This document shows positions 15,305-37,154 of a stretch of DNA of 64,000 bases, in pieces. A model generated the notes under the pieces. It did not search any database, had not been told where the DNA came from, and saw nothing but the letters and a program-made list of their open reading frames with translations. Origin of the DNA: Macrolepiota albuminosa (lineage: Eukaryota; Basidiomycota; Agaricomycetes; Agaricales; Agaricaceae); NCBI GenBank assembly GCA_027475525.1, contig JAMWFC010000054.1, positions 558,001 to 622,000 on the forward strand. The letters run 5' to 3'. Made by a program: the position numbers and the translations under genes. Positions within the stretch are counted from its first letter, which is position 1. Every line of letters starts with the position of its first letter.

Positions 15305-15318
15305 TCACCCCCTCCTTT
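15305..15318 (-). other. Polypurine tract of element B
   Basis: On the minus strand AAAGGAGGGGGTGA lies directly 5' of the 3' LTR, the expected place and composition for the plus-strand primer. Confidence 0.75.
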
Positions 15319-15347
15319 AGCGCCGAGTCCCTACGAGGCATTGGGGA

Positions 15348-17319: not shown

Positions 17320-17540
17320 GGGGCGTCTTGGTAGTCCTTTTTTTTTCTTTTCTTCTTTTTCTTCTTGGGCATTGTATCTAGTGTAGTAGTAGCGTGTATA
17401 TAAATATCTGGGTTTTTTTGGTAAGCATAGGGGAATAAGAGTCAGGGGAAGAGGATGAGGAAACTTATGGGTGGGAGTTGAATCCCGGATGAATCCAGAG
17501 GCAGGGGTTACGCCCCTGTAGGCTGTCTGTGGGGTTTCAG

Positions 17541-19543
17541 CCCTGGGAGGCGCGGGGCTTGCCGGGGTGGGCCCGGTGGAACTCCCGGAGCTTGTCGGGG
17601 GCGGTCCTCAGGTTTCCCGCGGGTTCCCAGGTGTTGTCCTCTGGTCCGTAGCTGACCCATCGTATGAGGTAGTTTACCCGCCCGCGGATGATTCAGGAGT
17701 CGAGGACATGATCCACCTCGTAGTGATACTTGTCATCTACTTCGAGAGGCGGGGGTCGGTCAGGGCGTTGTCCCGGGAGCGGGTCCAGGGCGTGTCTCTT
17801 GAGGAGTCGGACGTGGAACACGGGGTGCAGCCCCTTGAGGCCCGGAGGAAGGTCGAGCCGGTAGGCGTGGGAGGATACCTTCCGGACGATCTTGAAGGGG
17901 CCGAAGCGTTTGTGGTCGAGTTTTACTGAGGGGCGCCGGGTCCGGAGGTTGCGTCAGTCGAGCCAGACTACGGTCCCGGGGGGCCAGTCAGGCGTGTTTT
18001 CCCACCGGGGGTTCGCATGCTTGGAGTAGGCCTTATTCGCGATGTCGATCTCACTCCGGAGGAATTTGTGGAGGTCCCAGAGGTCCTGGGCTGCTTCATG
18101 GGCAGCGTGGGCTGGGATATCCCAGAGGGATAGGGTCAACCGGGGGTGGTATCCCTTGTTCGCGAAGAAAGGGGACACCCCAGTGGCGGAGTGGGAGGTG
18201 TTGTTATAAGTGAACTCGGCGAGAGGGAGTTCGGCGTGCCAGTCGTTCTGGAGGTAATTGACGTAGATTCAGAGGTACTGTTTGAGGGTCTGGTTGGCAC
18301 GTTCGGTTTGACCGTTGGTCTCCGGATGGTAAGCGGTCGACAGGTTGGTCTGGACGCTGAGGGCCTTGCACAAGGACGTCCAGAACTTCGAGACGAAGAG
18401 GGGGCCTCGGTCGGAGACGATGTCGTCAGGTAGCCCGTGCTTCGAGAACACGTGCTCGAGGAAGAGCCGGGCAAATCTCGGGGCGTCGTCGGTGGTGTGG
18501 CACGGGACAAAAATGGCCTGCTTAATGAGTCTGCAGACAATGACGAGGATAGCATCGTACCCTTCCGATTCTGGGAGCTCGACGATGTGATCCATGGAGA
18601 TGGATGACCACAGGTGCCTCCCCACGGGCAGGGGCTTAAGGAGTCCGTAGGGGCGGTGCCGGGGGACTTTGGCCCGGAGACAGGGTTCGCACGCCCGGAC
18701 GTACCGGGTGACGTCCTTCTTCATTCCTGGCCAGAAGTAAGTGTGGGAGATAAGCTGGAGTGTTTTACGGATTCCTGGGTGGCCACGGAGCTTGTGGTTG
18801 TGGTGCTGTTGAAGGATGTCGAGGCGTACATGCTTGAAGTCCGGGGCGTAAATGTGGCTGTCCTGGAGGAGCATTTTGTTATCTGGAGAGAAGGTGAAGG
18901 AGGGGTCGGGGCTTCGTCCGTCAGAGAAATTGTTCCGGGGGTCGTGCTGGGCGAAGTAGCTATCTTGGGGGGCATCCCGAACCTGCCTCAGGATGCCTTC
19001 TTCGTTCAGGATCAGTACCGTGTTGAGGTGCTCGGGAGGGATCACTACGTGGTGGTTGAAGGCGTTTCGCTCGGCTTCGAAGGATTTCTTGGGGTAGACG
19101 TCGGGTCGTCGGGTGAGGGTGTCGGGCTTGGCTCCGAGTCGTCCGGGACGGTAGTGGATGGTGAAATCGTACTCCGAGAGGACCTCGGACCATCGGGCTT
19201 GTCGGCGGCTGAGGAGCTTGGTGGTCGTGAAGTACTGCAGGTTGTTATGGTCCGAGTAGACTTGGATCTGATGCGGGGTACCCTCGAGATAAACTCGCCA
19301 CTGCTTGAAGGCTTCGACAATCGCGAGGAGTTCCTTGTCGTAGATGTCGTAATTGAGCTCGGCCGGGATCATTGATCGGGTGTAAAAAGCCACGGGTCGG
19401 AGCTCCTGGTTGCCCGGCTCCATTTGCAAAAGGATACCCGCGATGGCATAGTCGGAGGCGTCGCACTCCAGGACAACCGGGAGGGCGGGGTCGTAGTGCC
19501 GGAGAATAGGATACCCGCGATGGCATAGTCGGAGGCGTCGCAC
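17541..19543 (-). pseudogene. pol: Element B RNase H, integrase and chromodomain
   Basis: The frame 18269-19543 holds RNase H ([14 protein letters not shown] near its start, then YSDHNNLQYF) and integrase: the HHCC zinc region (LRGHPGIRKTL...CEPCLRAK) and the catalytic core with SMDHIVELP, VSDRGPLF and YHPETNGQTERANQ, giving D, D and E. After a stop it continues at 17954-18178 and 17541-17930 with the GPY-like FGPFKIV and a chromodomain (DHVLDS, stop, [19 protein letters not shown]). The stops after KQYL, after VVWLD and in the chromodomain are lesions. It is the normal chromovirus Pol C-terminus. Confidence 0.9.
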
Positions 19544-20560
19544 TCCAGGACAACCGGGAGGGCGGGGTCGTAGTGCCGGAGAATCGGGGCTGAAGTGAAA
19601 ACTTCCTTGAGTAAGGTGAACGCACTTTGTTACTGTCCCACCTCCAGGGGGTGCCCTTCCAGGTTAGCCGGTTGAGGGCCTTGGTGATACCGGAGTAGTT
19701 GTCAATGAAGCGTCGGTAGAAGTTTGCGAACCTGAGGAAGGATTGCACTTCCTTGACGTTTTTCAGAGGCGGCCAGTTGAGGATTGCTTCGACCTTTGCG
19801 GGGTCCATGCGAACTCCGTCCAGGGTGACGATGACGCCAAGATATTCGACTTCCGTGGTGTGGAACGAGCACTTCTCCAGTTTCGCGTGTAGGTTGTGAC
19901 TTCGGAGTCGTTCGAGGACTTGCCGGACGTGGATTCGATGTTCGTCAAGGAAGTCTGAATAGATCAGGATGTCGTCCAGGTAGACAATGATGAAGACGTC
20001 GTTCATGTCGTGGAAGATGTCGTTCATGAAGTACTGGAAGGTCGCGGGGGAGTTAGTCATTCCGAATGGCATTACCAGATATTCAAAGAGGCCGTAACGG
20101 GTGCGGAAGGCCGTTTTCCATTCGTGTCCCGGGGCAATCCGGACGTTGTTGTAGCCCGACCGGAGGTCGATCTTTGAGTAAACCTTGGCTTTGCTGAGTC
20201 GGTCGACGAGGTCTCCGATGAGGGGTAGGGGGTATCGGTTCTTCTTGGTGATCTTGTTCAAGCCCCGGTAGTCGACGCAGAGGCGGAGGGATCCGTCTTT
20301 CTTTTTGGCGAAGAGAACCGGTGCGCCGGCCGCGGAGATTGAGGCGCAAATGAAACCCTTACCGAGCATGTCGTCGAGGTAGTCCTTGAGTGCCCAGAGC
20401 TCGACCTCGGACATGTTGTAGACTTTGCCGAGCGGGGGACTCGCGCCGTCCTCGAGGTCGATCTTGTGGTCATATGGCCGGTGCGGGGGGAGGTCCTTGG
20501 CGCTACCTTTGGAGAAGATGTCAGCAAACTTGTGATACTTGGGGGGAACAACTTCGGCGA
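19245..20560 (-). pseudogene. pol: Element B reverse transcriptase
   Basis: The long frame (which continues 5' through the protease region to 21659) includes all RT blocks: FAKKKDGSLRLCVDYRGLN, YSKIDLRSGYNN, the MPFGMTNSPATFQ block and YLDDILIYS (about 19956-19985) with the catalytic YLDD, then the EYLGVIV and FANFYRRFI thumb/connection. Downstream the frame is lost around 19620-19650 and again in the tandem duplication. The strongly conserved palm motifs suggest loss of function was recent compared with element A. Confidence 0.92.
19431..19584. repeat. 77-bp tandem duplication in element B pol
   Basis: 19431-19507 is repeated at 19508-19584 almost exactly. Because 77 is not a multiple of three, the duplication shifts the frame between RT and RNase H and explains why pol is in two pieces here. 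Confidence 0.95.
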
Positions 20561-20879
20561 GGAGTTGGTCTTCAGTCTTAGCGTTGGGGCCGGTGTTTTC
20601 AGCCCGGAGGTGTTCCTCAGGTAGCGTCAGGGATACCTGGAGTTGGTAGGCCGGGGTGCTGTCCTGGAGAATTCGTGCGAAGGGGGTGCAGCCGATGATT
20701 TTGATGTCCGGGGTTCCCGGTGAGTCGGGGGGGTCGTTGAGTTCGGAGCTGGGCCCGGGGGGTCGGTGGTTCCGGGCGGGGTAGTGAGGCCCCCTGTAAC
20801 GATTTTGAGGAACGTTGGGGAGAAATTTGATGGGTTCCCTTCGGGGGTTTTTGGGGCGTCCCGGGTCTTCCGAGGCCCG

Positions 20880-21670
20880 TGGGTAGAGGTGGATGGCGGC
20901 GGCGAGGCGGGCCCCCAGGTTAGGGAAGGTCATGGTGAGGTCTTCCCAGCGGATGTCGGGGTTCACATCTCGGAGCCAAAGGAGGCCTAGGACGATGGGG
21001 GTCGTTTCGGGGAGTCGTGTGACCAGGAAGTCGGCCGGGAACGTTAGGTCGTTGTCTAGCGTTATGGTGGTGGAGTGTCCCTTCGTGATAAGTCCGGTGG
21101 TGGCATCGTTCCCATCGAAGAGCCGGAGGCCGAGAGGTTTGTCGAGCTGGATGTGGGGAAGGGCGAGGCAGTCGCTGATGAACATTCTGGTGGCTCCGCT
21201 ATCGACGAGGGCAGGGAGACGTTCGGTGGTGGCGCCGAGGCAGACATGGATCACGAAGGAGCAGGTGGCCCGGGAGCGGAGGCCAGGGGGTTCCTCCCGG
21301 GGGCACCGGGGGTCCTCCAGGCCCGTTGGAGGTGGCGGGGGTTCGAAGGGGATTGCTTCTTGGGTTGCGTCTTGGTCGAGAGCAAGCGTGAGGGTCCTCC
21401 AGTCGATTCGGAGATTGGTGGCACGCAGCCATGGGGGTCCGAGGACGAGAGGGGCGGCGGCATGGAGCTTGGTGACCAAGAGCCGGAGTGTCTGATGATG
21501 GCCGGAGGCGAAGGTCACAGGCATTTGCACGAAGTGGGTGATGTCGCCGGCGGAGGAGGAGTTCCCGTCGAAGAGTCGGAGATGGATGGGGATGGGGGGG
21601 CTGGGGGGCAAGGGCCGCCCAGGCTTTGTCGATGAAGTTGTCGGTGGCGCCGCTGTCAATGAGGGTGTTG
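20880..21670 (-). pseudogene. pro: Element B: two tandem retropepsin domains
   Basis: Two complete protease-like units lie head to tail. Unit 1: LIDSGATDNFI (about 21633-21665), then RLFDGNSSSAG and PLVLGPPWLRATNLRIDW. Unit 2: LVDSGATRMFI (about 21180-21212), then RLFDGNDATTG and PIVLGLLWLRDVNPDIRW. Each has the catalytic DSGAT and the hydrophobic LG-x2-WL motif near its end. Retropepsins work as homodimers, so a covalent tandem could act as a single-chain dimer (inference). A 1-nt shift in the C-run near 21600 separates DSGAT of unit 1 from its remainder. Confidence 0.8.
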
Positions 21671-22316
21671 ACGGGCTCCGGGGAGGAGGCGAGGGTGGTA
21701 CGAAGGAGGAGAGATTGTGGGGAGTGTGAAGGGAGGTGGGCCAGGAGGGTGTCCGAGGATTGTTGAGCCATGGCGCAAAGATGGGAAACCGGGGCAGAGA
21801 AGACGTCGGGGTCCGGACCGCGATTCAGAATGTCTTCTATTTCTAAATTGCTGGGTCGTTTTCCGTAAACTGGAAGTCGCAGTCTTCCCCGTCGATGGTC
21901 CAGACGGCCCGACCCATGGTCTGGCGCTTTGGGCAACTGCCGATGAAGTGTCCGGGTTCCCCGCAGAGGAGGCAGGTGCCCTTCCAGTGTCGCTGTTCCT
22001 GAACATCTTCGGGGACATCGATCCAGGGGCGGTCGGGGTTCCTGACTCGGTTTGCACAAAGAGCTTCCTCTTTGTCGCCTTTGGGGTGTTCGTCGGCTGG
22101 GTCGTCGGGGTCGTCGGGGTCTCCGGGGAGGGGGTCGGGGATGTCGCTGATGTCAGCTGTGTTGAGGGCGGCTGGTGGTCGTGGTGCCGGGGCATGGGGC
22201 GGTCCAGGGGGTTCTCATCCGGGGTTCGGACGCGTGGTGGGGTCTTGCGGCACCTGGCTAGGGACTCCTGAGTGATTAGCTTTCCAAGAGGTTCCTCCCG
22301 GAGGGGCCCACTGGCC
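21671..22316 (-). pseudogene. gag: Element B nucleocapsid and linker
   Basis: In one minus frame at about 21925-21999 a CCHC zinc knuckle, CLLCGEPGHFIGSC, fits C-x2-C-x4-H-x4-C. The flanking sequence is Pro/Thr/Ser-rich. The knuckle frame closes at about 21845 and the neighbouring frame (NRGPDPDVFSAPVSHL...) leads into protease unit 1, so at least one shift is present between them. Confidence 0.75.
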
Positions 22317-24479
22317 TCAAGAGCTGGAGTACTCGTTGCGATCTTCCCAGTACCTCTGGTCGATCTGGGTCACCAGTGCCTTGTAGCCGTTGTATGTTGC
22401 CTGCTTGGGTGCGAGGCGGAGGACGTCTTTGATTCGCTGAGGGAGCGCTCGCCGGAGGGCGAACCGGAGGGCGTTGTAGTTCCAGCCCGTCTCATAGGCC
22501 TCCTTCTCGAATCGGACGATGAAGGTGGCAAAGCGCTCCTCGGATCTCATTCGGAGGTTGAAGAGGTTTTCCTCGGCTTCTGCGACGGTGTTGAAAATGC
22601 CGAAGCGGCCGGAGAATTCCTGCACGAAGGCCGCCCACTGGGATAGTACGGGGTTGTTGGGGTCGAACTGGAGGAGGGCCGTGTAGTGATCGAAGGCCAG
22701 TCCCTGCAGGTACGAGGCGGCGAATGCGACGCGGGATCTTTCGAGCTGAAACGTGACGGGTTTGGCTTGAAACATGTTGAGGCACTGCATCAGGAAGGTT
22801 CGCCACTTCCAGGGGTCGCGTCCGTGGAAGGGTTCGGGCTTCTGTATGTCGAGCTTACTTTTCCAGGCGAGGGCGTCCTGAGTATCGTCCTGCGGGTTCG
22901 GTGGGCGCGGGGGGGGAGCGGCGTGGTAGTAATAGTAGTAGTAGTTTCCTCCTCCCTGTTGAGGTGGGAAGGCGCCGGCGGCGGCGCCCCATCTCCCAGG
23001 AGGTCCTCCGTCTGGCGGGCCTCCTCCGGGGGGCTGGCCGTGCCCCCCGGGCAGGGGTCCGGGGGCCCATTGGGGGTTGGGGGGCGGCGGGAGACCGCCG
23101 GGTCCGAGGGGGTGGGCAGCGAGAGGAGGTCGTCCCGGGGGGGAGAGGGTGGATGGGGGCCCTGTCTGGGGTGTTGGGGGGGTGGACCGTAAGGGGGTCA
23201 AGGGGGTCCCGGTTCGGGGCCATGCAAGGGTCGGGGGGCCCGTGGTTGGGGGAGGCCCGGGGGGTCCTGGCCCGAAGGGGGGCCGGGGTGGGGCTGGTTG
23301 TGGCCGGGTGTCGTCCTGGAGTCCCGGGGGTCCTTCGTGGCCTCGGGGGGGGCATAAGTCCAGGTGGGGGGGCGTTCACGGTTAAATTCGGGGGCGGCAG
23401 CGGGAGGGGGGTTCCCAGGGTTGTGGGGTTCGTCGATGTACGAGAGGGTGTCGTCCGAGGTGTCGTCGTCCTCGGGTCGGGGTTTACCTCCCGGGGGCAG
23501 GGGTTTGCCTTCGGCCGTCTGTGCCCACGTGTTGAAGGTGCCGAGCACTGAGTAGGCTTGGAGGCGGGCGGAGAGTCCGACGGTGTGGGCGGCGGGTTGG
23601 TCGAAGAGGCCCCCAGTCAAGTTTAGGGACCGCAGGGTGGCAGAGGCGGCGTTGAGCTCCTCCTGCCGCCGTTGGTCTCGTGGCGGGGGGTTCCCTCGGG
23701 TACCTGAGCGGGGCTCGTCCCTCTGGATGTGGAACGAGCAGGCCGGATCCAGGGGATCCTCGAAGCGGTGGGGGTTGGAGCTGGTGTGGATTTCGTCTAT
23801 CAGGCTCTGGAGTTCGTCCCGGAGCGTCGGGTCCACTTGCAGCGTTCTTTTGGTGTTGTCGGAGAGGGTCCCTTTAAGGAATTGGTCGTAAAAGCGGAGG
23901 AGGCGATTGGCCCATTCTTCCAGCGTGCCCCGGAGGTCGTGGTTGCCGAGGGTGACCAAGAGGGCGTGCGTGCGTCGGGCGAACTCCTCTGGGGAGGTGC
24001 GGAGCGCACGCAGCACTTCATCTCGCTGTCGGCAGTACTCCTCCGTTCGTCGCTCCAGTGGGGAGGTCGGAGGGCGGGCCGGCAGGGCCGCTATGGGGTG
24101 TGGCCGATTCTGAGACGGTTCCGGGGTTTCTGTATTCGAGGGGGGTGGTTGGGGTTGGGCGGCCTGCGGCCAGGGTGCGAATGGCCCTCTGCTGGCGGGA
24201 GGTAGATTGGCTCCCCACGGGGTTTCGGGGAGTCCCCCAGGTACCATCCTGTAGGTGCCAGAGTTGATGGGAGGGTTGGCGTACATCCGCCAGTCCGGAG
24301 GGTGCAGGAGCTGGCTGGCCGAGAGGCCGTAGGCTCCATTCGGGTCGGGGGCTCAGAATCGGGGTGCGGGGTAGATTTTGGGAATCGGGGGTGCTGTGGC
24401 TATATTGTTCAGATAGTGGGCGACCGTAGGCATCGGTTTGGTAGCCCACAGGATAGTAGACGGGGATGTACGTAGACAT
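22317..24479 (-). pseudogene. gag: Element B Gag (N-terminal region and capsid)
   Basis: An ATG at 24479, 32 bp after the 5' LTR, starts MSTYIPVYYPVGYQTDAYGR. The frame shifts near 24290 into 23198-24286 (helical EEWANRLLRFYDQFLKG region and Pro-rich tail), then 22317-23201, which begins Pro/Gly-rich with a run of six Tyr and contains the capsid core (WKWRTFLMQCLNMFQAKP, ASYLQGLAFDHYTALLQF, LFNLRMRSEERFATFIVRFE) of the Ty3/gypsy Gag family. It ends at 22317, just before the nucleocapsid linker. Gag would form the virus-like particle. Confidence 0.85.
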
Positions 24480-24498
24480 TGAGAACGGGGTAAGGGGG

Positions 24499-24510
24499 AG
24501 TCTTGATATT
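24499..24510 (-). other. Self-complementary primer binding site of element B
   Basis: One base after the 5' LTR, the minus strand reads AATATCAAGACT. Its exact 12-nt complement AGTCTTGATATT occurs on the minus strand inside the LTR (24892-24903 and 24969-24980; also 14827-14838 in the 3' LTR). No tRNA 3'-end complement (TGG...) is seen. This fits self-priming as in the Tf1/sushi group, where the 5' end of the transcript folds back on the primer site. Confidence 0.65.
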
Positions 24511-24511
24511 A

Positions 24512-25427
24512 TGTCAGGTTCCGCTGACGACGGGGGCCTCCGGGGGCAAGCGGGTCCTTACTAGGCGGACTCGAAGTCTACGGAGAGTCTCCGGGTGAGT
24601 TCCGGAGTTTTGGGTAGGGCACGGGGTGACTACGGGGCGCCGGAGTTCGTAGGAGGAGGTAGAGCAGGATCCCGGGCTAAGTCTGGAATACGGGGCGGAA
24701 GTGGGCGGAGCCTTGTTAAGGCAGAGGGGTGATCAGGGAAAGGGACTGAGACCGGGAGGCTGAGACTGGAACCGGGAGACTAAGTTGGAATTGAAGTGAG
24801 ACTTTAAGAGGACCGGGAGACTGGAGAGAGTAAGACAGATAGATTGAGACAGGTATGAAATAGACAAGAGAGTATAGAGACGAGTTATAGCAATATCAAG
24901 ACTACCGTAACGCAGATAGATTGAGACAGGTATGAAATAGACAAGAGAGTATAGAGACGAGTTATAGCAATATCAAGACTACCGTAACGTACTACGAGCT
25001 GCGGGTTAAGTACCAGGTGCCGGCTGAGCTCCGTACCCCCTTCCATGTGGTGCGTCCCGTGCAGCGTATTGTCCAGGTGTTAGTCCTCTGCGGTCATGTA
25101 GTCCCGGGGAGCGTAGATGGGTTGCGGTGTATTGCCCGGGTTCGGGAGTGGCGCCAGGAGGGCGGCGTCAAGTGGAGGCGGCCTCCGGCATGATCGATCG
25201 AGGCTTGGGGCGGCGTCCGGGGCACGTGGCGCATTGGCGGGGCTTCGGGCCTTATCCGGGGGTTGAGCATCTGGTTGGGCTGGGTCGGCCCTGGTCGGGG
25301 TGGCATCAGATCTAGTCGGTCTTGTCCCGATGTGTTCCAGGGGTGCGCTGGGAGTTTGGGTCTCAAAGGAGGGGTTCCAGGCAGGACTTACTGGGGGGTC
25401 GGGGTGGTGTAGGCGTGGCTCGTGACA
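24512..25427 (-). repeat. 5' LTR of element B (right copy)
   Basis: 916 bp, ends TGTCAGG...GTGACA on the plus strand. It contains a perfect-looking 77-bp tandem duplication (24836-24912 and 24913-24989) that is single in the left LTR, accounting for most of the length difference. Confidence 0.95.
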
Positions 25428-25707: not shown

Positions 25708-28700
25708 TTACATACTGAGATGCTGAATCACTAATTTTACAAATTTACGTCGAAAAGTCTTATCATTCAATGGCTTGCCTAAAGCCAGAACATCCTTTTC
25801 AATAGTTAAATAAGTATCACTTTGCATGCAAGTAGTAAGTGCATTTATAAAAGATTCAAAGAAAGAATTAGACTCAAATTGATACCAAAATGAATTTGCT
25901 AAGCAAATGAGATAAACTAAAATAAGTTAGAAAAAATTAATTAAAAATATCAATAACAAAAAAAGACAATATCATACCAGCAAAAACAGTTAATGATGGT
26001 GTCTACAACAAAAAAAAATAATTAAAAGCAAAAAGTTTAATAAAATCAAATAAAATTACTAACTTTGAACTTTTCTCGAAAAAGTTTTATTATCTTGAAA
26101 CAAAGCTGAAAAAATTATATTAAAAGAAGTAAAAATAAAAATATATATTTAAACTTACTATCTAAATAAATTTTCAAATTTGCTAAAATAAAAATAAAAA
26201 TAAAAATAATATTTTACATTGCTCTAAATTATTAGTCAGCTGCAAATTTCTTAATTTTTAATAAAGACTAGTAATACTTACTTTCTAAATATATTTTCAA
26301 CTTGTTAAGCAATTTTGCAATAATATAATATAACTTACATACTGTAAATATATCTTATTAATTAATTATATTTTAACAATAGTACAACTTACATTCTTGA
26401 AATGTTATCAACTTAATATTAGTTTTTAAATTGATATAAAAGTTAGTGCAACTTACTGCCTAAAAATATTATTAATTTAATATTAATTTGTAGATTAATA
26501 TAAAAGTCAGTGCAACTTACTCTCTTAAAATATTATTAATTTAATATTAACTTGTAAATTAATATAGAAGTCAGTGCAACTTACTATCTAAAATATTATT
26601 GACTTAATATTAATTTTTAAATTGATGTAAAAATTAGTGCAACTTACAAACTAAATATATTTTAAACAATCAGCTTTTAAATTTTTACAATACCCAATGC
26701 AACTTACAGCCTATATGTGCATTTTGCTATTAGATTTGAGTACCAAATAACAATCAATGCAACTTACAATCTAAATATATTTTCAATTTACAATTAGCTT
26801 TCAAAATATTATAAAATCTAGTGCAACTTACAAGCTAAATATATTTTCAATTTATAATTAATTTTTATATTTGCATAAAAGCCAATGCAACTTACACCCT
26901 ATATTTGCATTTTGCCATTAAATTTGAATATTAAATAAAAATCAATGCAACTTACAATCTAAATATATTTCAAATTTACAATTAGCTTTTAAAATTTTAT
27001 AAAATCTAGTGCAACTTACAAGCTAAATATATTTTTACTTTATAATTAATTTTAAAATTTATATAAAAGCTAATACAACTCACCAACTATCAATTGATAA
27101 TCAATTTTTCTATTTGCATAAAAGCCAATGCAACTTACAACCTATATTTGCATTTTGCTATTATATTTGAGTACTAAATAAAAATCAATGCAACTTACAA
27201 TCTAAATATATTTCAAATTTACAATTAGCTTTCAAGACTTTATAAAATCTAGTGCAACTTACAGGCTAAATACATTTTTTAAGTTGTTATTAGATTTGAA
27301 TTTTACATAAAAATTAATAAAACTTACAGTCTAAATATAATTGAAATTTAGAATTAGCTTTTTTTTATGCACAAAAATCAATAAAACTTACAAACTAAGT
27401 ATATTTTAATTTACAATTAGTTTGCAAGTTTTTATAAAAATCAATGCAATTTACAAGCTAAATATATTTTCAATTAAGAATTAATATTTAAATTTTTTTA
27501 TAAAAGTCAATGCAACTTACTACAGGCTAAATATATTTTTAATATACATGCAGCTATAAGTTGACAAAAGCCAGTGCAACTCACAAGCTAGATATATTTC
27601 CAACTTGCTATTGAAATTTGAATTTTATATACAATTGATGCAACTTACAGTCTAATTGTATTTTGAATTTACAATTAGCCTTTAATTTTGTATAAAAATC
27701 ATTAAAACTTACAATCTACAAATTTATAATCAGCTTTTAAATTTTTATAAAAGTCTGTGCAACATACAAGCTAGATAAATTTTCAATTTGATAAAAAATT
27801 AAATTTTGCATAAATTTAGTACCACTTACAAACTAAATAAAAATTTTCCAATTAATTATCAACTAGTAAGTTTATATAAAATCAATACAACTTACAGTCT
27901 AATATATTTAAAGTTATAATTAGTGTTTAAATATATATAAAAAACATTAAAACTTACTTTCTAAGTATATTTTTAATTTGATATTAGATTTAAATTTTGG
28001 ATAAAGCCAAAGCAACTTGCATTCTAGATAAATTTATAATGTGTCAGTTAATTCTTTACTTCTGCACAAAAGCTATTGCAATTTACTTTCTACACATGTT
28101 TATTAGCTTTTATTTTTGCATAATAGCTAGTGTACTTACAAGCTAAAGATATTTTAAATTCATTATAAGCTTTCATGTTTTTACAAAAGCTGATACAACT
28201 TACAAGCTAGATACATTTTCAATTTGCTATTACATTTAAATTTTGCATAAATTCAATGCAACTTACTTTCTATATATATTTTCAATTTATCATTAGGTTT
28301 TAATTTGCATAATAGCTAGTATACTTACTTTCTAATAGCATTTTAAATTTTTATAAGCTTTTAAGTTTGCATAAAAGCCAGTACAACTTACAAGCTAAAT
28401 AAATTTTAAATTTATTATTAAATTTCAATTTTGCATAAATTCAATTCAACTTACAAACTAGATATTTTTTCAATCTATTATTAGCTTGTAATTTTATTTA
28501 AAAAAATCAATGCAACTTACAATCTAATATATTTTAATTTACTATTAGCTTTCAAATATATATAAAAAGTATTAAAACTTACTTGCTATAAATATTTTTA
28601 ATTTGCCATAAAATTTGAATTTTGTATAAAGCTAAAGCAGCTTACATCCTTATAATACATTGGTCATTTTAATTTTGCATAAAAGTTATTACAACTTACA

Positions 28701-31010
28701 TTCTAAACACATTTTAAATTTTTTATTAAATTTTAATTTTGCACAAAAGTAAATGAAACTTACATGCTAAAAACATTTTTATTACAATTAGCTTTTATAT
28801 TTGCATTAAGCAAATGTAACTTACAATCTAAATATATTTTAAATTTACAATTAGCTTTCAAGTTTGTATAAAATAAGTTCAACCAACTTTCTAAAAATAT
28901 TTTCAATTTTTCATCAAATTTTAATTCTTATAAAAGTAAATGAAACTTACATGCTAAACATATTTTTATTATAATCAGCTTTTATATTTGCATAAAGCGA
29001 ATGTAACTTACATTCTAAATATATTTTAAATTCACAGTTAGCTAAGTTTGTACAAAGTAAATTTAACTCACAAACTAAATATATTTCAAATTCACAATTA
29101 GCATTTCATTTTATATAGAAGCCACTGAAATACAAATCAATGCAGCTTTCTAGATATATTTTTATTTTGTTATTGATTTTTATTTTTGATAAAAGTTAGT
29201 GCAACTTACCAGCTAAATATAATTTCAATTTAATAGTTAGCTTTTAATTCTGCATACTATTTAGTGCAACTTACATCCTAGATATGTTTTAATTAATTGT
29301 CAATTTCCAATTCTACAAAAAAGCTAGTGCAACTTACTATCTAAATATATGTTCAATTTACTAGCTGGCTTTTTAATTCTGCATTCAATTCAATGCAACT
29401 TACATGCTTATACATTTTTAATGTGCCAATTAATTTACCAATTTTATAAAAACATAAATTACACATTACTTACTTTTTCATCCTGCAAGTTCATCATTAA
29501 ATGCTAGTTCCAAAATTCAACTTACATACATACTATTGCAAGAAACAATGTGAGCAATCATTCTTAAATATAAAAGTCTACTCACAATCTATTATGCTGT
29601 ATTAATATCTTAAACAAAAAAAAATGACTAGCATACATGATCCTATTCACATGTTATTGCTATTCTTGACTTCATTTGCCTATTAAAAATTAAAATACTG
29701 CTAACAATAATATTTTATTGACTTACCAATTATAAATTGCCCACCTGATCCTAGATTCATTCATTTAAAAATGCTACAATTGCATGCTAACTTTCTTACA
29801 ATTATATGACCAAACCATTCCCATGTGTTATTCACAAATTTGTCCTACTCAAGTTAAAATCATGCAAATAATAATAAATTCATGCAAAAATACTCACCAT
29901 GCTCATACTTGTAAAGGATGTGCCTCCACTAAACTCACACTTGAGCATAGTAATAGCACATGAAGCCATACTCACTAAAGAACAGCATATTCTATGCATA
30001 GTTCCAGATTGTTTTTTTGAATTGATACAAACAACTTCTTCAGTTCAAGATTGTCAAGAGACTCTACTGTTATTTTCATCAGTTTCTTCACATGTTGCTG
30101 ATGTTCTCCCCCATCATCATGCATATCTATACATTCAGCAAAACAGTAAAGTGACAGTTTCCTAGACATAACAAGTAACCTACCTTCAAAACGAACACTA
30201 TCTTTGGGCGGAAAGAGATAATCATCGAACAATGGAGCTTTGAGACTGTTCAATTTGCGCTCTGCAGCCTTGCGATTGTCATCTTCGCTCAATTCATAGT
30301 CATATACCTGAACGATGAGATCATCAAATTTTGTGAAGATCGCAATGACTGGAACTACAGAGAAGTTTTTAGACGACACCAGCTGGGAAAAATCTCAGGT
30401 ACCAGAAACCCCACTGACCATTGCCCGCTCGTTCCTCATTGAAGAATTTCGTCTCTAAAGGAAGCAGGAACCTTGATATATCTGGTATGAAACAGAACCT
30501 GGGCAACAGATTAATTAGCAAGTCACGAGGTGAACAGTAAAAAGAACCAAATGGCATGAAGCTGATCATCTGGTCTTGTGGCCGTTGCGCGCTCCTTGAT
30601 AAATCTCTGAACCTCCTCAAGTTGTGTGTCGGCCCCTGCCTCGAACCCAGGTGAGTCATGGAAAATGAACCTCGGGTTGCTTTTGAAGACAAAGGGGAGA
30701 TTGATATCATGGATCCCACGCTGCAACGCAAAATCCTGGTCAGCCAAGCTCAAGGGACAAAAACGGTAGCAGTCACTGTCGATGTCGGCTCCAGCTAGAT
30801 CAGCATCTGTTTTAGAAGGAAAGCCGCCTAAAAGGTCAATTGTAAACGCACCAAACTATTCGTTTTTTCGTCGTAGAAGCGCGGGTCCTCGGTAGTGTTA
30901 CAAACCCGCTTCAAAATCATGGTTTTGCCAGCATTTGCCCGGCCGATTACAAGAATACGGAAACGAGAATATTTCTTTCTGAGTTCAGAGGCAGCGTAGA
31001 TGTCCTTCAT
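25708..31010 (-). CDS. P-loop GTPase with membrane segment, gene containing a single-codon exon array
   Basis: Predicted ~436-residue GTPase. Exons (minus): 30852-31010, 30777-30794, 30548-30735, 30419-30498, 30184-30354, 29976-30126, 29898-29928, 29800-29844, a doubtful 29745-29750, the micro-exon array 29642-26159, then 26064-26105, 25978-26002 and 25708-25916 (stop TAA). Phases agree at every junction outside 29643-29750. G1 is GRANAGKT, G3 is DSPGFEAG, G4 is TKFDD. A helical region (LFVSIQKNNLELCIEYAV) follows the G domain, then the array-encoded hydrophilic and transmembrane-like part, then FREKFK, TPSLTVFAGVYLICL and a C-terminus ending VKLVIQHLSM. The paralogue at 33551-35526 has the same order of domains. 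Role unknown; such GTPases may act at membranes (inference). Start: first ATG before G1. Confidence 0.85.
26159..27086 (-). CDS. Micro-exon block 4 of the GTPase gene (second half of membrane segment and basic flank)
   Basis: Low-end coordinate and residue: 27084 Leu, 27020 Leu, 26956 Ile, 26896 Gly, 26832 Leu, 26768 Ile, 26708 Ala, 26648 Phe, 26585 Ile, 26521 Arg, 26457 Ala, 26393 Asn, 26339 Tyr, 26282 Lys, 26218 Ser-Asn (6 nt), 26159 Ile. The helix ends at Ile 26585 and is followed by Arg and Lys. The next exon, 26064-26105, is an ordinary 42-nt exon in the same phase. Confidence 0.78.
27139..27832 (-). CDS. Micro-exon block 3 of the GTPase gene (first half of membrane segment)
   Basis: Low-end coordinate and residue: 27830 Phe, 27768 Leu, 27713 Ile, 27649 Thr, 27585 Leu, 27521 Pro-Val (6 nt), 27455 Leu, 27392 Phe, 27328 Thr, 27263 Pro, 27199 Ile, 27139 Val. 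No codon here has A in the middle position, so every residue is hydrophobic or small. Introns are 52-63 nt. Confidence 0.78.
27896..28890 (-). CDS. Micro-exon block 2 of the GTPase gene (basic)
   Basis: Low-end coordinate and residue of each 3-nt exon: 28888 Lys, 28825 Ile, 28764 His, 28700 Asn, 28646 Asp, 28583 Gln, 28521 Ile, 28455 Phe, 28392 Leu, 28329 Lys, 28267 Lys, 28204 Leu, 28140 Leu, 28087 Lys, 28021 Asn, 27958 Lys, 27896 Thr. The run of Lys/Leu/Asn ends just before the hydrophobic block, as expected for the cytosolic flank of a membrane helix. The intron after 28021 has a GC donor (GCAAGT). Confidence 0.75.
28951..29642 (-). CDS. Micro-exon block 1 of the GTPase gene (hydrophilic)
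   Basis: Low-end coordinate and residue(s) for each minus-strand exon, 5' to 3': 29637 Asp-His (6 nt), 29586 Ile, 29530 Tyr (donor GTATGT; alternative 7-nt exon if GTAAGT at 29525 is used), 29474 Asp-Glu-Lys (9 nt), 29404 His, 29338 Ile, 29275 Asp, 29210 Leu, 29147 Lys, 29072 Phe, 29012 Asn, 28951 His. Eleven of 15 codons have A in the middle position, giving a charged/polar stretch. The donor after 29147 is GCTGCA, a damaged site. Confidence 0.75.
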
Positions 31011-32282
31011 GGTGTGCGAGAGCGAAGATTGGGACGTTATCGATTATCACTCTGGCTCACATAAGCCAGAGTCCCTACCGTGGGGAAGGAAGTATTAAAA
31101 ACCACCAATCCCAGGCCGCTGATATTCAATGCATTCCCATGAAGCTCCTCAATTCGATCTCTTTGAAGCTGTAATTAGTTGCTCAAAGTTGCGTTGGTGG
31201 ATGTTTTAGTTGGGTCTTGTGACGGATTATTCCCGCAGACGATGAAGGGAGATTCAAAAGTCGACGCAAGTTGTGCACGCACAGGCTGATGACGATTATG
31301 GACTGACAGTAAATTTGAGTCTCCGATGAAATTACCCACGACTCGCCAAGTTTGTGCGCACAATACTTACTAGAAGCTTTAGGCTCCAGATCTTATGTTT
31401 ACTGTTCCTTATGATTTGCCATCTGGGTTCAACATGGTCACTTCTACATGATGATCTCTTCAAGTCTCGTTCCTCTACAGTTTCATATCTGCTTCTTTTT
31501 GGTATGTTATTTGTTGTTCCCCGCTCTAAATCAGGAGTTTATCTAGTTCCGTTCCAGAGATCAGCCACATCGCGTCCTTCTGGAATGTTGATGCGAATTG
31601 GGTAGTTTACTTTATTTAAAGTAGTCCAAAATGTAATTTAGACTGACTTTTATTGTATTTCAACTGTCCCAGTTTCACAGAGTACGTGGGGCTAAGTTAC
31701 GCTCGCGCACACTTTGTAAAAGTGATTATAATTTTTAATTGATTTATTGGAATGAAAAACTTAAAAAGTTTACACTCGAAATGGGTCAAAATAGTATTAT
31801 TACTAAACCCGAAGCTACTGTAATGCTCCTAGGCCTAAGAGATCCACTCCCTGGGTATTCCGAGCCGTGGCAATGCAATTGCTTGCCCGACTGCCCCAAT
31901 TCCTTCCTCCTCTTATACTTTTCTCTACGACGCACGGACCACGGCGTATTCGCGTGTTTCGAGGCCGGCTTATCGCGTTGCCGTGCTCATCCAGTCGGAT
32001 AGTATTACCGAGCCTGGGCATCCGTCCAAATGTTTTCCCGAGCCTTGGTGCACGTGGTCACCCTCTTTTCCGGCTAAACTCTTCTCCGTCGTCTGGCTGC
32101 CCCTTGTCTCTCTCCTTCCTTGCCCTCTCTTTCGTCCATCTCCTTTCTCCTTGCTTCGTAGCAGCAGCTGGGCGCGTTGACGGGTCGCAGACGAGTTTTC
32201 GTTAGATTCTGGAGTCGGGCGGAGAGTTGATGGCAAAGATGATGTCAGACTGATCTCGGATCACATTCCGAGATCAGGGATC
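31011..32282. other. Region between the GTPase gene and LINE remnant, no gene recognised
   Basis: Contains the presumed promoter of the minus-strand GTPase (just above 31010). Short open frames are present on both strands but none shows a recognisable domain or consistent splicing. Confidence 0.5.
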
Positions 32283-33105: not shown

Positions 33106-33550
33106 TCTTTTCATGGCTTTTTGGAGTAATTTTTAAGGTGAGGTAGCCCCACGTCTACAATTTTCGACGTACGCTTACAGTTTTCAGCGTTCTGATGGGT
33201 TATTCGGGGTCTTATTTCCTTCTTGTCTGCCTCGAGTGAGGCAGACGTATCAATGTAAAGGTATGGACCATTGCCAAAAAAGAAATCATTCCAAAGAAAA
33301 CGAGGGCCACACAATTCAAGATGAGTAGTGTCCAGTGTGTTTATAATTTGCGTCACGTTTTTTCAAGAGCTTTTCAGACAGTACTCGGTATGTCTTGTGA
33401 TCACAATGTCGGAGTTTGTCTCCACGTCAATGAACTGAAAGAGACTGGAGCGGGTTTACGGTGGTTTCGGCATTTCCCTCCTGGTAGTATCAAATTGGCT
33501 GTGTAACAATGCTAGTTTAGTTCTCTCACAGCAAACTTCATCCTGTAATC
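33106..33550. other. Upstream region of GTPase gene 2
   Basis: A minus-strand open frame (33111-33356) with an aromatic stretch FLWNDFFFGNGPYLYIDTSA looks protein-like but I recognise no family and see no clear exon structure. The rest should contain the promoter of the gene starting at 33551. Confidence 0.35.
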
Positions 33551-35526
33551 ATGTCTATACTTCTCCCAGATAGCCTCCCGTCGACAGTGGATGAAACACT
33601 AAGTTCCTGTCCACAGTGTGTCTCACTACTCGGACTGCGCATCTAAGCTCTAACAGTTATGGGGGGTTTTTAGGTTCCGTATCCTGGTCGTTGGAAGAGT
33701 GAGCCTGAACATTGGCTTCATCACTAGTAAAGCTGTTTTAATATTTGCAGAGCGGAGTTGGGAAGTCGTCTCTCGTCAGCAGTGTTTTCAATGCCGACAT
33801 TAAAGTCAGCGCCTAATTGTCCTCCGATAACATCTAACGATCGATCAGTAGGACATCGATATTGCCGATGGCCGAAGAGGAAAGTCAGATATTGCTCGAG
33901 AATTCACTTCTCCGGCCAATCCGCGTTTCATCCTCCACGATAGCGAAGGGACGGAGCCTGGGTCCACTGAAACATGGGATGTTGTAGAGAACTTTATCAG
34001 AAAGAAATGTAACGAACCCTTAGTTGAGCAAAGACTTCATGCCATCTGGTAAGGATCATCGCTCCTTTTTTAAAGCTCACTTAGGGGCATATTTATTGTT
34101 AGGTTGTGCATAGAAACACCGCGCACTGGTTCGCGCCTGTTACAGTCCTCTGACGAGCAGCTGTTATCGCTCGCGGCCGACCGTAAGACTAGTTTTATTC
34201 TTTTCTCTCTAGACTTACGCTATTTGAAGTGAGAATCCCTGTCATTATCGTCTTCACGAAATTTGATCTTTTATACAACGAGTATCACCGGAAGGTCTTG
34301 AAGCGTTACAAACATGCACCCTCCAACACAGATACGCTTAGATCAGAGGCAGAAAGAGAAGCTCGAATTCATCTTCAAGATTTGATGAACACGGTTCAAT
34401 TTCATCCAGACATCAATTATGTCTCTGTATCAATGCGTCTCAGTATGAAACACTATTGGACCTATCACTGCTTGACTAATCAATCTCCGAATCAGGATGT
34501 ATTGAGACGCTGAAAAATCTGACCCAAACTACTCGACATTGTCTGCATGAAGTTGAAGGGGAACTCTGGATTCCCTGGGCGGCTGCTCAGCAAATCAGTG
34601 CGCAACAAAAGGTCAATCTTTCAATAGAGTGTGTATTTTGCTACATCCTTGACAATCACCTATTGATTGAACGATTTTCATTATTAGTGAAGGCTTCAAG
34701 AGTATGTCGGTCCTTTCTGATTTACTTCGAAGTGGTGCTCATGATTACTCCAGAGTATTGGGTCGACTTGAGTCAAAGTGCCGCGTTCAAGGAGCACGTC
34801 TTATTTGATTGTCTAAGGCGTATTCACCTGGACATGATCAAGGTTTGGAATTTTTACGACCCGGAATCGGTAAGCCTAGCAATAGACTATCCTTTCTTGT
34901 AAGTCATCCAATGAGTCAATTTATTCAAGCTGCTTCCAGAGACGTGGTTCTGCACAGAAATGATCAAGTTGATTGAGCCGCTATTTGACAGACGTCAAGC
35001 TGGACCGTGAGTTGGTACCAAGTTGTATGCTAGTATTCTGAACATTCGGTTATTCGACTAGGGATGTTGGTGGGACGCTGACTGACCTCAGCAATCTGAG
35101 CACCATTGCTAGTGCTGTCGCCGCTGGTCCTGTAGCGGCGTTGCTCAGTGCAGCTGGGGTGACAGTAGCTGTAATCAATTTTCTCTGTCAGAAATATCAA
35201 GCAATGCATGTGATCTTATTTCAATGGACTACATATTTCTGCTGAAACCTTCTTCACCTAGACCGCGAACAGCACTGTGCCTCGGGGCATACATCGTCGA
35301 CCTCATTCTGATCCTCCACAATATCTTCATGGAGACACTGGTGAAGGAACCACCAAGGCCCCTCAACAAGGAACTTATCCAAGACACATTAAATCAATAT
35401 AAAGACACACAATTGAGAAATGTCCACCAGGTGATTTGCAGTATAACTATTGGGAAAAGCTCTCTGGATCCCAGAGAAAAGATTGCAGATTTGATTCGGC
35501 AGCAGTTGAAGATGGATAGGACATAG
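33551..35526 (+). CDS. P-loop GTPase with C-terminal hydrophobic segment (paralogue with ordinary exons)
   Basis: ATG at 33551 starts MSILLPDSLPSTVDETLSSC. First exons are 33551-33615, 33674-33698 and 33751-33804, spliced by GT-AG introns of 50-58 nt. G1 is split by an intron (GR / SGVGKSS), G3 is HDSEGTEPGS, G4 is FTKFDLL. Later parts include WNFYDPES, a hydrophobic alanine/valine-rich segment (about 35095-35190, AAGPVAALLSAAGVTVAVIN) and a conserved tail (LGAYIVDLILILHNIF, KEPPRPLNKEL) ending at 35526. Several mid-gene junctions (34150-34230, 34440-34500, 34690-34760) are not fully resolved, so partial decay is possible. It is divergent from, and homologous to, the GTPase at 25708-31010. 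Confidence 0.8.
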
Positions 35527-35650
35527 GCGAGGTGTGAAAGACGCATACAACCAAGCTGTCTTATGGAATAAATGTTATCCGGTCTTGTGTTATTGTGGTT
35601 GTCAGTAAATTATTCCAAATAAATCTTCTCGATTCTTCTATGATTTCTAC

Positions 35651-37154
35651 TTATGCCTCCTGGTTCTTCATATGCAAGACACTAAGAAAATCCATGATCT
35701 CTTCCAATTTAACATTTCCCCCTAGCTTCTGGATCTCCTCGCGTGTTTGTGCTTCGAGTGTCTCAAGCACTGCAAAGGTATACTCGAAAGATTTCGTGCG
35801 TGTACGCATGTACTCAATAGTATGGCTCTTTAAAGTTGGTGATGCAGGGCGTTTCTGAAGGACATCTAATCTAAGTAAGCATGGGCGTTGAGATAGGCTT
35901 GAATGAGAAGACGTACTGAGAACTTGACGATTTGTCTTATCTGCATGGATACTATGCACTACAGGGAAGGAAAATTTGCCTTCAGTAAGGTCCTCGGCGA
36001 AACCTTTGTTCTTCGTGTACTGAAAATGATATAGACATCAACATATTGTCACAAATATAAGGCGCCTCATAATCCACGGTCTTCTTTTTGACTGAAGACG
36101 GACAAATAATGGAGGCAAAGTGGCAAAGTCCCCATGTCAGGACCAGAAAAGTACGTACCTCTGTGCCAAGTAGATTCATCAAATCGTCCCGGATCTGGAA
36201 ATATATTCCGATGAGGTTGACGAGAGGTACATAGTCCCTGCCACAAATCTCAGTATGGTTACTACTGAAGGGCGAAAGTCATCCTACACATCAATATTCT
36301 TCGTAGAGCACGCCATCATCAGCTTGATACCAATGCGAAGCAGACCACCTGTCTCTATTAAGAAAGGATGAATTTCCGCGCGTGTGTTTAGAATTAAAGT
36401 ACATCAGTACTAACTATTGTTCACCATGGAAATATACTCTTCCTCTGTCGGGCATTGAAGGGAGTCACGCCAAAAGATCTCGAGACCTTGTCCACGATGT
36501 AAAGACAGAAGCTCCTCTGTGTGAAAGCAATCGATTTCGGACTGTAGCAGAAGTATAGGAGTACACACCGGTGACAATAGTATCAAGCCTCCGTTGTCGG
36601 TCGTGTTCAAAAGAGCCTTGGTCACAAAGGGATATGAGTTCTTTGTACGCGAGGAAGAAGACGTAGTTCGCAGTGTTGATCGTTTGTGGGACCCCATAGA
36701 TCTTGTGCGCGACTGAGAAATATAAGAAAACTGGCGGTCACGTAACTGAAGTATTTTACCAGGTTGGCCTCTGCGGAGTTGCGAGTCGTCCTCAATGTCA
36801 TCTATTCTGTACAATCACACATACCGTACTTGTACACAGGCGACAATGAATCACAAATATAAAATATTACTCACAAGAGACTTGCTGAATGCAACATGTT
36901 CACCAGACGTGAGATGATCGCGAGCTTTGAGGCAGGAACTTCGAGCCAAAGGTTAAATGCCTCAATGAGTTTGCCACGGATCTCCTTTCCCGGATTTGAG
37001 GTAATATACACATATGGCTCCATCAAGATCTTGCCACATTTTTAATTAGAGGATGAACATCAGAAACTTGTATGGATGAACGAACGGATTCCTTTTGTGA
37101 AGACCAGGAAGGGAGAGATCCCAGTTTGGAGAGGATATTATCATAGTGGGACAT
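35651..37154 (-). CDS. Geranylgeranyl diphosphate synthase
   Basis: Trans-prenyltransferase that extends farnesyl diphosphate with isopentenyl diphosphate to C20 GGPP for protein prenylation and diterpenes. Start ATG 37154 ([13 protein letters not shown]). The first intron probably joins KES to [20 protein letters not shown] using an AAG acceptor. The first Asp-rich motif DDIEDD with downstream RRGQP is at about 36760-36800; then [31 protein letters not shown], and the second Asp-rich motif [12 protein letters not shown] at about 36180. The C-terminus (ILQKRP-like region, [26 protein letters not shown]) ends at 35651. All family landmarks are present; seven or so short introns. It is convergent with GTPase gene 2, with stops only about 125 bp apart. 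Confidence 0.93.

What the first reader, a model, noticed from the sequence alone, without database searches (positions are those of the whole stretch)
26159..29642. Array of ~57 micro-exons, 53 of them a single codon (3 nt), each separated by a ~60-nt intron
On the minus strand every unit boundary reads TTTAG-NNN-GTAAGT. I walked the whole array: 53 exons of 3 nt, three of 6 nt, one of 9 nt, none breaking the frame. The array sits inside a GTPase gene. The upstream exon 29800-29844 ends in phase 0, and the downstream exon 26064-26105 (42 nt) starts in phase 0 and continues through two more exons to a TAA at 25708. In phase 0 no exon is a stop; the other two phases close (ATA/GAT gives TAG, TTT/AAT gives TAA). 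About 95% of 3.4 kb would be intron to make ~60 residues. One caution: most exons end in T before GTAAGT, which lowers the chance of stops in phase 0. I know of no described gene with a run of one-codon exons.
Basis: partly seen in the sequence, partly recalled or inferred. Interest (0 to 1): 0.98.

Follow-up and report, generated by a model that had tools for sequence, protein, structure and literature searches.

The report
Mushroom gene with one-codon exon array
A mushroom-group fungus carries GTPase genes with runs of about fifty predicted exons that are mostly a single codon (three DNA letters) long, so the cell would likely build one stretch of the protein almost one amino acid per splicing event.

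Summary
The array is real, far beyond chance, and best read as true one-codon exons. On the minus strand, 29750-26159 holds 57 predicted micro-exons (52 of 3 nt, four of 6, one of 9), in frame between a GTPase exon and conserved C-terminal exons. Three more GTPase loci of this genome carry arrays at the same place (57, 53 and 47 micro-exons). In two of these the introns have diverged to near-random similarity (0.55 against 0.53 shuffled), yet splice sites and 3-nt spacing persist. A splice parse with no preference for multiples of three gives 196 of 198 exons divisible by three, 189 exactly 3 nt; shuffles give 23 of 78. Of 13 transcript-like proteins of relatives that span the region, 10 carry a contiguous motif matching the first micro-exons, including a Tyr that has its own 3-nt exon in all four genes; a hypervariable linker with the array's odd composition follows. 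One, P0127, lacks both. No RNA of this fungus was available, so inclusion of each codon is inferred. Nine paper searches found no described run of one-codon exons.

The parts
30852..31010 (-). GTPase exon 1 (ATG 31010, P-loop GRANAGKT)
   Evidence: Pfam PF01926 22.3 bits against cut-off 21.9
30777..30794 (-). GTPase exon 2 (18 nt, LEPTST)
   Evidence: aligned C60 copy
30548..30720 (-). GTPase exon 3
30419..30498 (-). GTPase exon 4
30184..30354 (-). GTPase exon 5 (VPVIAIFTKFDD...)
29976..30126 (-). GTPase exon 6 (...LELCIEYAVL)
29898..29928 (-). exon 7 (31 nt)
29800..29844 (-). exon 8 (45 nt, ...WFGHII), last ordinary exon before the array, ends in phase 0
26159..29750 (-). whole micro-exon array: 57 predicted exons (52x3, 4x6, 1x9 nt), 189 exonic nt of 3592
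29745..29750 (-). micro-exon GATCAG (DQ), 6 nt, donor GTGGGC
   Evidence: set by hand; 6-nt counterpart in C60, C13, C115
29637..29642 (-). micro-exon GATCAT (DH), 6 nt, donor GTATGC
   Evidence: set by hand; 6-nt counterpart in all four genes
29586..29588 (-). one-codon exon ATT (I; D or K in C13, C115 and several transcript-like relatives)
29530..29532 (-). one-codon exon TAT: the Tyr invariant in the 13 aligned sequences
29474..29482 (-). micro-exon GATGAAAAA (DEK), 9 nt; GKT/EKT in transcript-like relatives
26159..29406 (-). variable part: 50 one-codon exons and two 6-nt exons, spaced about 60 nt
   Evidence: one search lists every exon with its donor
29147..29149 (-). degenerate unit AAA without a usable donor (GCTGCA); left out of the model (one search read a 24-nt in-frame exon here, a 16-nt one)
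28021..28023 (-). one-codon exon AAT with a GC donor (GCAAGT)
27521..27526 (-). 6-nt exon CCTGTA (PV)
26218..26223 (-). 6-nt exon AGCAAT (SN), weak donor GTAAAA
26064..26105 (-). first ordinary exon after the array (42 nt, LCFKIIKLFREKFK), phase 0
25978..26002 (-). 25-nt exon (TPSLTVFA)
25708..25916 (-). last coding exon with TAA 25710-25708; conserved ICLANSFW... C-terminal part

Best explanation
The array (minus strand 29750-26159) is a run of 57 predicted micro-exons, 52 of them one codon long, in a fungal GTPase gene, and would be spliced in phase 0 into a 63-residue variable linker between the GTPase domain and a predicted helical C-terminal domain. Shown: the splice-site and spacing pattern in four loci; conserved coding flanks; exon sizes 6-6-3-3-9 readable at the array's front in all four genes; the matching contiguous motif and a composition-matched linker in transcript-like relatives. 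Inferred: each intron of about 60 nt is recognised as an intron (intron definition) through an unusually strong donor (GTRAGT), a T-rich stretch just behind it and a TTTAG acceptor; because a 3-nt exon is too short for both of its ends to be bound at once, introns are likely removed one after another, each step adding one codon to the upstream exon and leaving the next donor intact, like recursive splicing with a 3-nt step. Inferred: the array grows and shrinks by duplication or loss of blocks of whole intron+codon units, so each unit adds exactly one residue and no unit can break the frame; skipping a micro-exon is frame-neutral, while keeping an intron nearly always breaks the frame. The result would be a hypervariable linker whose sequence drifts codon by codon.
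For: (1) k=3 spacing: 45, 53, 29 and 24 sites in the four arrays; every other spacing from 1 to 15 occurs 0-2 times per array; shuffles 0.1-0.5 per k. (2) Parse without a multiple-of-3 preference: 196 of 198 exons 3n, 189 exactly 3 nt; splice scores 157-284 against at most 9 in 40 shuffles and at most 3 on the reverse strand; a parse that also takes in the array front: 209 of 217. (3) Not repeat inertia: in C13 and C115 intron interiors are 0.553 and 0.556 identical within the array against 0.531 and 0.534 shuffled, and over 93 of their units most intron-interior positions carry little information (often below 0.1 bit) against 0.5-2.8 bits at the core splice sites. (4) Coding flanks conserved in frame: C89-C60 omega 0.37 before and 0.72 after the array; the C-terminal parts of all four genes align to relatives. 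(5) Front micro-exons TTTCCT|GATTAT|GAT|TAT|GAAAAAAAA|GAG (C13, FPDYDYEKKE) and TATGGG|AATTAT|AAA|TAT|GAAATAACA|GAG (C115, YGNYKYEITE) match a profile of ten transcript-like relatives (YNNYDYGKTE and variants), each P=5e-6, the floor of the test; the Tyr is invariant in the 13 sequences aligned. (6) S, C, W, M, T and A are 14 of 179 array residues, 8 of 330 linker residues in 11 transcript-like proteins, 656 of 2742 elsewhere in those proteins (P=3e-26). (7) GTRAGT donors: 97 of 114 array exons against 4 of 20 ordinary introns of C89 and C60. (8) Keeping one array intron leaves an open frame in 2 of 214 cases. (9) Best-matching units (identity 0.78 or more) lie 2-4 units apart in 39 of 64 cases. 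(10) Six more distant GTPase loci and the rest of the window have no such clusters.
Against: No RNA from this genome could be examined. That P0013, P0065, P0121 and the others are cDNA is inferred from long uninterrupted frames on contigs of about 0.9-1.6 kb; their genomic loci were not seen, so their linkers are not proven to come from arrays. The window's own array still shows repeat homology (0.66 against 0.54 shuffled), and its front motif fits the transcript profile only weakly (C89 P=0.052, rank 5 of 54 positions; C60 P=0.021, rank 1 of 52). Absence of stops is weak (P=0.036). One unit (29149) is degenerate and several donors are weak (28890 GTTGGT, 26223 GTAAAA, 29750 GTGGGC). Of 13 spanning transcript-like proteins, three lack the clear motif: P0127 has neither motif nor linker, P0083 has Phe at the Tyr place, P0157 a diverged motif; P0063 has the motif but only 14 linker residues. 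Gene models of Laccaria (P0050) and Lactarius (P0111) pass over the region in frame. Splice matrices came from k=3 sites (intron letters only), so one search is not fully independent. The front exons were set by hand.
Confidence: 0.87

Rival explanations
1. AT-rich minisatellite in one long intron: a 60-bp repeat that happens to contain AG-NNN-GT has been amplified, and the whole array is removed as a single intron.
For: C89 and C60 arrays are still detectable tandem repeats; skipping the whole array keeps the frame; gene models of Lactarius vividus (P0111) and Laccaria (P0050) do just that.
Against: In C13 and C115 repeat similarity is nearly gone but 50 and 43 3-nt exons and their splice sites remain; spacing hardly ever drifts off 3n (2 of 198); the front codons match contiguous coding sequence in relatives. 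A single intron needs none of this.
Confidence: 0.05
2. Mixed inclusion: the first micro-exons (6-6-3-3-9-3) are constitutive, but most of the rest is skipped or included at random, so each gene makes a population of proteins with linkers of different length.
For: Skipping is frame-neutral for every micro-exon; transcript-like relatives have linkers of 14-37 residues (13 proteins), shorter than the 43-53 residues behind the front block in these four arrays; P0127 has none; P0149 runs into what looks like retained intron.
Against: Donors are much stronger than in ordinary introns of these genes (97 of 114 against 4 of 20), which argues for efficient use; the relatives' arrays may simply be shorter.
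Confidence: 0.3
3. The gene ends before the array (truncated GTPase from an early poly(A) site or intron retention) and the array is decaying pseudogene sequence.
For: Many of the database gene models seen stop just after WFRHSY.
Against: Exons behind the array are open and conserved in all four genes, splice sites are kept between nearly saturated introns, and 13 transcript-like relatives read through to the C-terminal part, which AlphaFold2 models as a confident helical domain in P0013. The early stops look like a gene-finder limit.
Confidence: 0.04

Closest known systems
Aphid bicycle and megacycle genes (PMC9168663, passages read)
   Same: Genes with very many small exons; the megacycle gene has more than 100 microexons and a protein of about 2000 residues.
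   Different: Roughly 20 residues per exon there (my division), mostly one residue here; nearly all internal bicycle exons are phase 2, here array introns are phase 0; the protein here is a GTPase.
Schistosome micro-exon genes (MEGs; recalled, only listings seen)
   Same: Runs of symmetrical micro-exons whose skipping keeps the frame and can vary the protein (recalled).
   Different: Their exons are several codons long and the proteins are mostly secreted (recalled); here 199 of 214 predicted micro-exons are exactly one codon.
Single 1- to 3-nt microexons: 1-nt exons of plant APC11 and VPS55 (PMC8831610, passages); two 3-nt exons in a fungal lipS gene (PMC5639578, passage)
   Same: Show that exons of 1-3 nt can be included; the 1-nt exon of VPS55 is flanked by conserved GTRAGT donors.
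   Different: Isolated exons, not runs of about 50.
Fungal microexon of Trichoderma Xlr2 (PMC11121469, start of abstract only)
   Same: A functional microexon in a filamentous fungus.
   Different: One regulated microexon in a regulator gene.
Recursive splicing (PMC6224609, start of abstract only)
   Same: A splicing step creates a new donor at the junction, the order of events proposed here.
   Different: There an RS-exon is joined and may then be removed; here every step would add a codon that stays.
Introner-like elements and intron gain by tandem duplication (PMC4457414, PMC4974935, starts of abstracts only)
   Same: Introns multiplied by copying DNA.
   Different: Here intron and codon appear copied together, in tandem, and the pattern hits lie almost only in this GTPase family (72 of 75).

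Membership tests
TRAFAC-type GTPase, Pfam MMR_HSR1 (PF01926) | profile match and P-loop | tested here: met
   22.3 bits against cut-off 21.9; GRANAGKT
Agaricomycete 'G domain-containing' GTPase family | homology over the GTPase part and the C-terminal part | tested here: met
   1056 homologues, best 120 listed; the fungi named there are Agaricomycetes (classification recalled); C-terminal part aligned
Micro-exon gene (general sense: several exons of at most 30 nt, frame-neutral) | many symmetrical micro-exons | tested here: met
   57 predicted exons of 3-9 nt, all 3n, one non-3n candidate dropped
Micro-exon gene (general sense: several exons of at most 30 nt, frame-neutral) | exons shown in RNA | not testable with these tools
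   no RNA of this organism; relatives' transcript-like proteins only
Aphid bicycle genes | internal exons nearly all phase 2 (PMC9168663) | tested here: not met
   array introns are phase 0
Introner elements | near-identical introns scattered over many genes | tested here: not met
   72 of 75 two-unit pattern hits lie in the five GTPase loci; introns of C13 and C115 are not alike
Non-coding minisatellite | spacing and motifs persist only as far as repeat similarity does | tested here: not met
   (on C13 and C115; C89 and C60 alone would not decide it)
Recursive splicing | stepwise removal seen as intermediates | not testable with these tools
   needs nascent RNA

The most novel reading that the evidence does not exclude
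Exon equals codon: a gene architecture in which dozens of consecutive amino acids each have their own exon, so that DNA-level gain or loss of 60-bp units, and frame-neutral skipping of any unit in the RNA, both change the protein by exactly one residue. In this GTPase family it would act as a diversity generator that tunes and scrambles a linker between the GTPase domain and a helical domain, possibly in a recognition or defence role, across many mushroom-forming fungi and overlooked because gene finders cannot model it.
Probability: 0.4. Interest if true: 0.97.

Novelty: new variant of a known kind. Interest (0 to 1): 0.93.

Why it matters
Isolated 1- to 3-nt exons are accepted curiosities; some fifty in a row would test the limits of splice-site recognition, splicing order and fidelity (nearly 60 correct events to make 63 residues). 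It offers a natural substrate for asking how the spliceosome handles exons too short for both ends to be bound at once. It also shows how a coding repeat could be compressed about twentyfold by splicing, and suggests that many database models of this GTPase family are cut short at the array.

Tried and rejected
Positive selection on the codons: among closely related units codon positions 1 and 2 differ about twice as often as held-out intron positions (0.42 against 0.21), and in chosen disjoint pairs 19 of 48 against a rate of 0.148. I do not claim it: one search picks pairs by intron identity, and the AT-rich introns saturate at a lower mismatch level than codon positions. Unit-by-unit orthology between C89 and C60 arrays: no clear collinear matching. 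Prokaryotic or viral carriers: no relative confirmed in genome contigs or viral contigs. A C-terminal-only protein search found only its own query. Solved structures by sequence: none at E 0.1. Fold search of the AlphaFold2 model of P0013: weak resemblance to IRG, dynamin-like and septin GTPases (best E 5e-4, TM about 0.3); not used to assign function. Branch sites: a YTRAY 12-40 nt before the acceptor is in 142 of 214 array introns, against a mean of 99 (maximum 116) in 100 letter shuffles: an excess, not a clean signal. Paper searches for a run of one-codon exons: (nine searches, open-licence PMC only): none found.

Rows dropped before counts: the first splice parse gave more non-3n exons (16 of 60, 59, 55 and 56 in the four arrays together, mod-3 counts in the call) because it gave AAG acceptors little weight and allowed long exons; searches replaced it, but searches use its exon list (179 3-nt exons). 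In one search, candidates that were not 3n were dropped (C89 29149; C115 AATGTAAT) and front exons were set by hand; the end of the C115 gene was not determined. Linker boundaries were set by eye; P0063 and P0083 were left out of the main composition test and added back (15 of 370 against 844 of 3529, P=8e-24); P0127, which has no linker, is in neither. Of 172 proteins held, 17 span both anchors: 13 on short contigs and four genome-based models. The alignment took nine of the 13; of the four left out P0063 has the motif and Tyr, P0083 has Phe there, P0157 is diverged and P0127 lacks it. The motif profile took ten peptides, those nine and P0149.

Full report
What was checked. The window is G000:C89:558001-622000, part of a 100-Mb assembly of 129 contigs. 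The protein relatives that bear names are mushroom-forming fungi (Termitomyces, Lactarius, Phlegmacium, Tephrocybe and others; best 120 of 1056 listed; that these are Agaricomycetes is recalled); the species was not identified. Counting YAG-N(k)-GTRRRT for k from 1 to 15 gives 45 sites at k=3 and at most two at any other k, against 0.14-0.31 per k in shuffles.

The array is one of a family. A DNA search of the same genome found a second array (C60), and pattern searches found two more (C13, present twice as copies identical over 14.4 kb, and C115). Of 75 two-unit pattern hits 72 lie in these five places; the reversed pattern gave 7. All sit at the same position in paralogous GTPase genes, behind the exons that encode ...LCIEYAV and WF(R/G)H... 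The four distinct arrays hold 57, 57, 53 and 47 predicted micro-exons, 214 in all: 199 of 3 nt, 10 of 6 nt, 5 of 9 nt; two candidates that were not 3n were dropped. Six more distant GTPase loci and the rest of the window have no clusters of k=3 sites.

Why the exons are real and not repeat inertia. In C13 and C115 the introns have lost almost all similarity to one another: 0.553 and 0.556 identity within the array against 0.531 and 0.534 for shuffled letters. Over 93 units of these two arrays most intron-interior positions carry little information (often below 0.1 bit), while the core donor and acceptor positions carry 0.5 to 2.8 bits. Yet the distance from acceptor to donor stays at 3 nt. A splice parse that scores only donor, acceptor and a smooth preference for short exons yields 198 exons from the 9-nt exon to the array end, of which 196 are multiples of three and 189 are exactly 3 nt (binomial P about 3e-90 against one third). 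In 40 shuffled arrays it finds 78 exons, 23 of them 3n, and its scores are at most 9 against 157-284. The matrices were built from k=3 sites, but from intron letters only. Run over the array fronts as well, a like parse gives 209 of 217.

The flanks are coding and in frame. The window gene reads through eight ordinary exons (276 aa), the array, and three more exons to a TAA at 25710-25708, 430 aa in all. Between C89 and C60 omega is 0.37 before and 0.72 after the array. In all four genes the exons behind the array align with relatives around ICLENSFW; the end of the C115 gene was not determined.

Transcript-like relatives. Of 172 homologous proteins held, 17 span both flanks of the array: four are genome-based gene models and 13 lie on contigs of about 0.9 to 1.6 kb with long uninterrupted frames (for example P0013, 425 aa on 1498 nt), although the window gene has seven introns in its first 1.2 kb. 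I infer that these 13 derive from spliced RNA. Ten of the 13 carry, between WF.H and the C-terminal part, a contiguous motif, YNNYDYGKTE and variants. In this genome that motif is split over exons of 6, 6, 3, 3 and 9 nt in all four genes (set by hand), followed by a 3-nt exon: FPDYDYEKKE in C13, YGNYKYEITE in C115, DKETIYDEKV in C60, DQDHIYDEKH in C89. C13 and C115 match a profile of ten transcript-like peptides at P=5e-6, the floor of that test; C60 at 0.021 and C89, the window gene, only at 0.052. The Tyr is invariant in the 13 sequences aligned (four genes, nine transcript-like proteins) and has its own TAT exon in all four genes. Of the four spanning proteins not aligned, P0063 has it, P0083 has Phe, P0157 is diverged and P0127 has neither motif nor linker. 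After the motif comes a hypervariable linker of 14-37 residues (13 proteins with a linker). Its composition is odd in the same way as the arrays: Ser, Cys, Trp, Met, Thr and Ala make up 8 of 330 linker residues in 11 proteins (15 of 370 in 13) and 14 of 179 array residues, but 656 of 2742 residues elsewhere in those 11 proteins. This fits codons squeezed between AG and GT: none of the 179 array codons ends in C, and none encodes Ser, Cys or Trp (the 6-nt exon AGCAAT, outside that count, does encode Ser).

How it likely works (inferred unless a call is cited). Array donors are far stronger than those of the ordinary introns of the same genes (GTRAGT 97 of 114 against 4 of 20), and in C13 and C115 positions +9 to +12 are T-rich. 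A branch-site-like YTRAY is in 142 of 214 introns, against a mean of 99 in shuffles. This suggests intron definition of 60-nt introns and stepwise removal, each step adding a codon. Keeping any one array intron leaves an open frame in 2 of 214 cases, whereas skipping any micro-exon is harmless to the frame. Arrays appear to grow by block duplication: in C89 and C60, 39 of 64 best-matching units lie 2-4 units apart. AlphaFold2 of the relative P0013 gives a GTPase domain, a low-confidence stretch (296-318) that overlaps the motif (294-303) and the front of the linker (304-328), and a confident helical C-terminal domain. Fold search suggests only a remote likeness to IRG, dynamin-like or septin GTPases.

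Novelty. Nine searches of the open-licence PMC library turned up isolated 1- to 3-nt exons in plants and fungi (passages of PMC8831610 and PMC5639578) and an aphid gene with more than 100 microexons that are much longer than a codon on average (passages of PMC9168663), but no run of one-codon exons; the passages seen of a 2026 review of non-canonical splicing (PMC13149111) mention none. Subscription papers and preprints were not searched. I file it as a new variant of micro-exon genes, at an extreme not described in what I searched.

Limits. There is no RNA from this organism; inclusion of each codon is inferred. The window array alone would not exclude repeat inertia; the case rests on C13, C115 and the transcript-like relatives.

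Noticed in passing
G000:C13:300001-316000 and 384001-400000 (L011-L014): The C13 GTPase locus is present twice on one contig, 82 kb apart, identical over at least 14.4 kb without a mismatch: a very recent segmental duplication or an assembly artefact.
   Followed up: partly
database proteins P0002-P0005, P0017, P0022 and others: Many of the genome-based gene models seen of this GTPase family in Lactarius, Termitomyces and other fungi stop just after WFRHSY, where the array begins here; possibly widespread truncation by gene finders.
   Followed up: partly
window 33386-36744 against G000:C60:32001-35375: The region 5' of the GTPase gene is 96% identical to C60, while the best match over the gene and the front of its array (window 28196-31034) is 79%: the gene may be hypervariable between alleles or paralogues.
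   Followed up: no
window 33873-34052 (+): A second, distant GTPase-like stretch next to the gene (38% to P0050, with a stop inside), without an array.
   Followed up: partly
window 426-601 and 13965-14145: Both match the same stretch beside the C115 locus and lie about 13.5 kb apart; could be the ends of a mobile element, with a reverse transcriptase frame at 4914-5705.
   Followed up: no
window 15000-25000 (-): GC-rich block (0.57-0.70) with reverse transcriptase, RNase H and integrase domains, gypsy-like by my reading, 3' of the GTPase gene.
   Followed up: no
window 51330-55949 (-): Copia-like retroelement (RVT_2, gag-pre-integrase, gag).
   Followed up: no
window 39043-43098 (-): Open frames of a HEAT-repeat protein, possibly GCN1-like.
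   Followed up: no
window 19431-19584 and 24836-24989: Two perfect 77-bp tandem duplications with different units.
   Followed up: no
G000:C90:2749363-2749435 (L026): An isolated pair of TAG-NNN-GTAAGT units outside the family; no array around it.
   Followed up: partly
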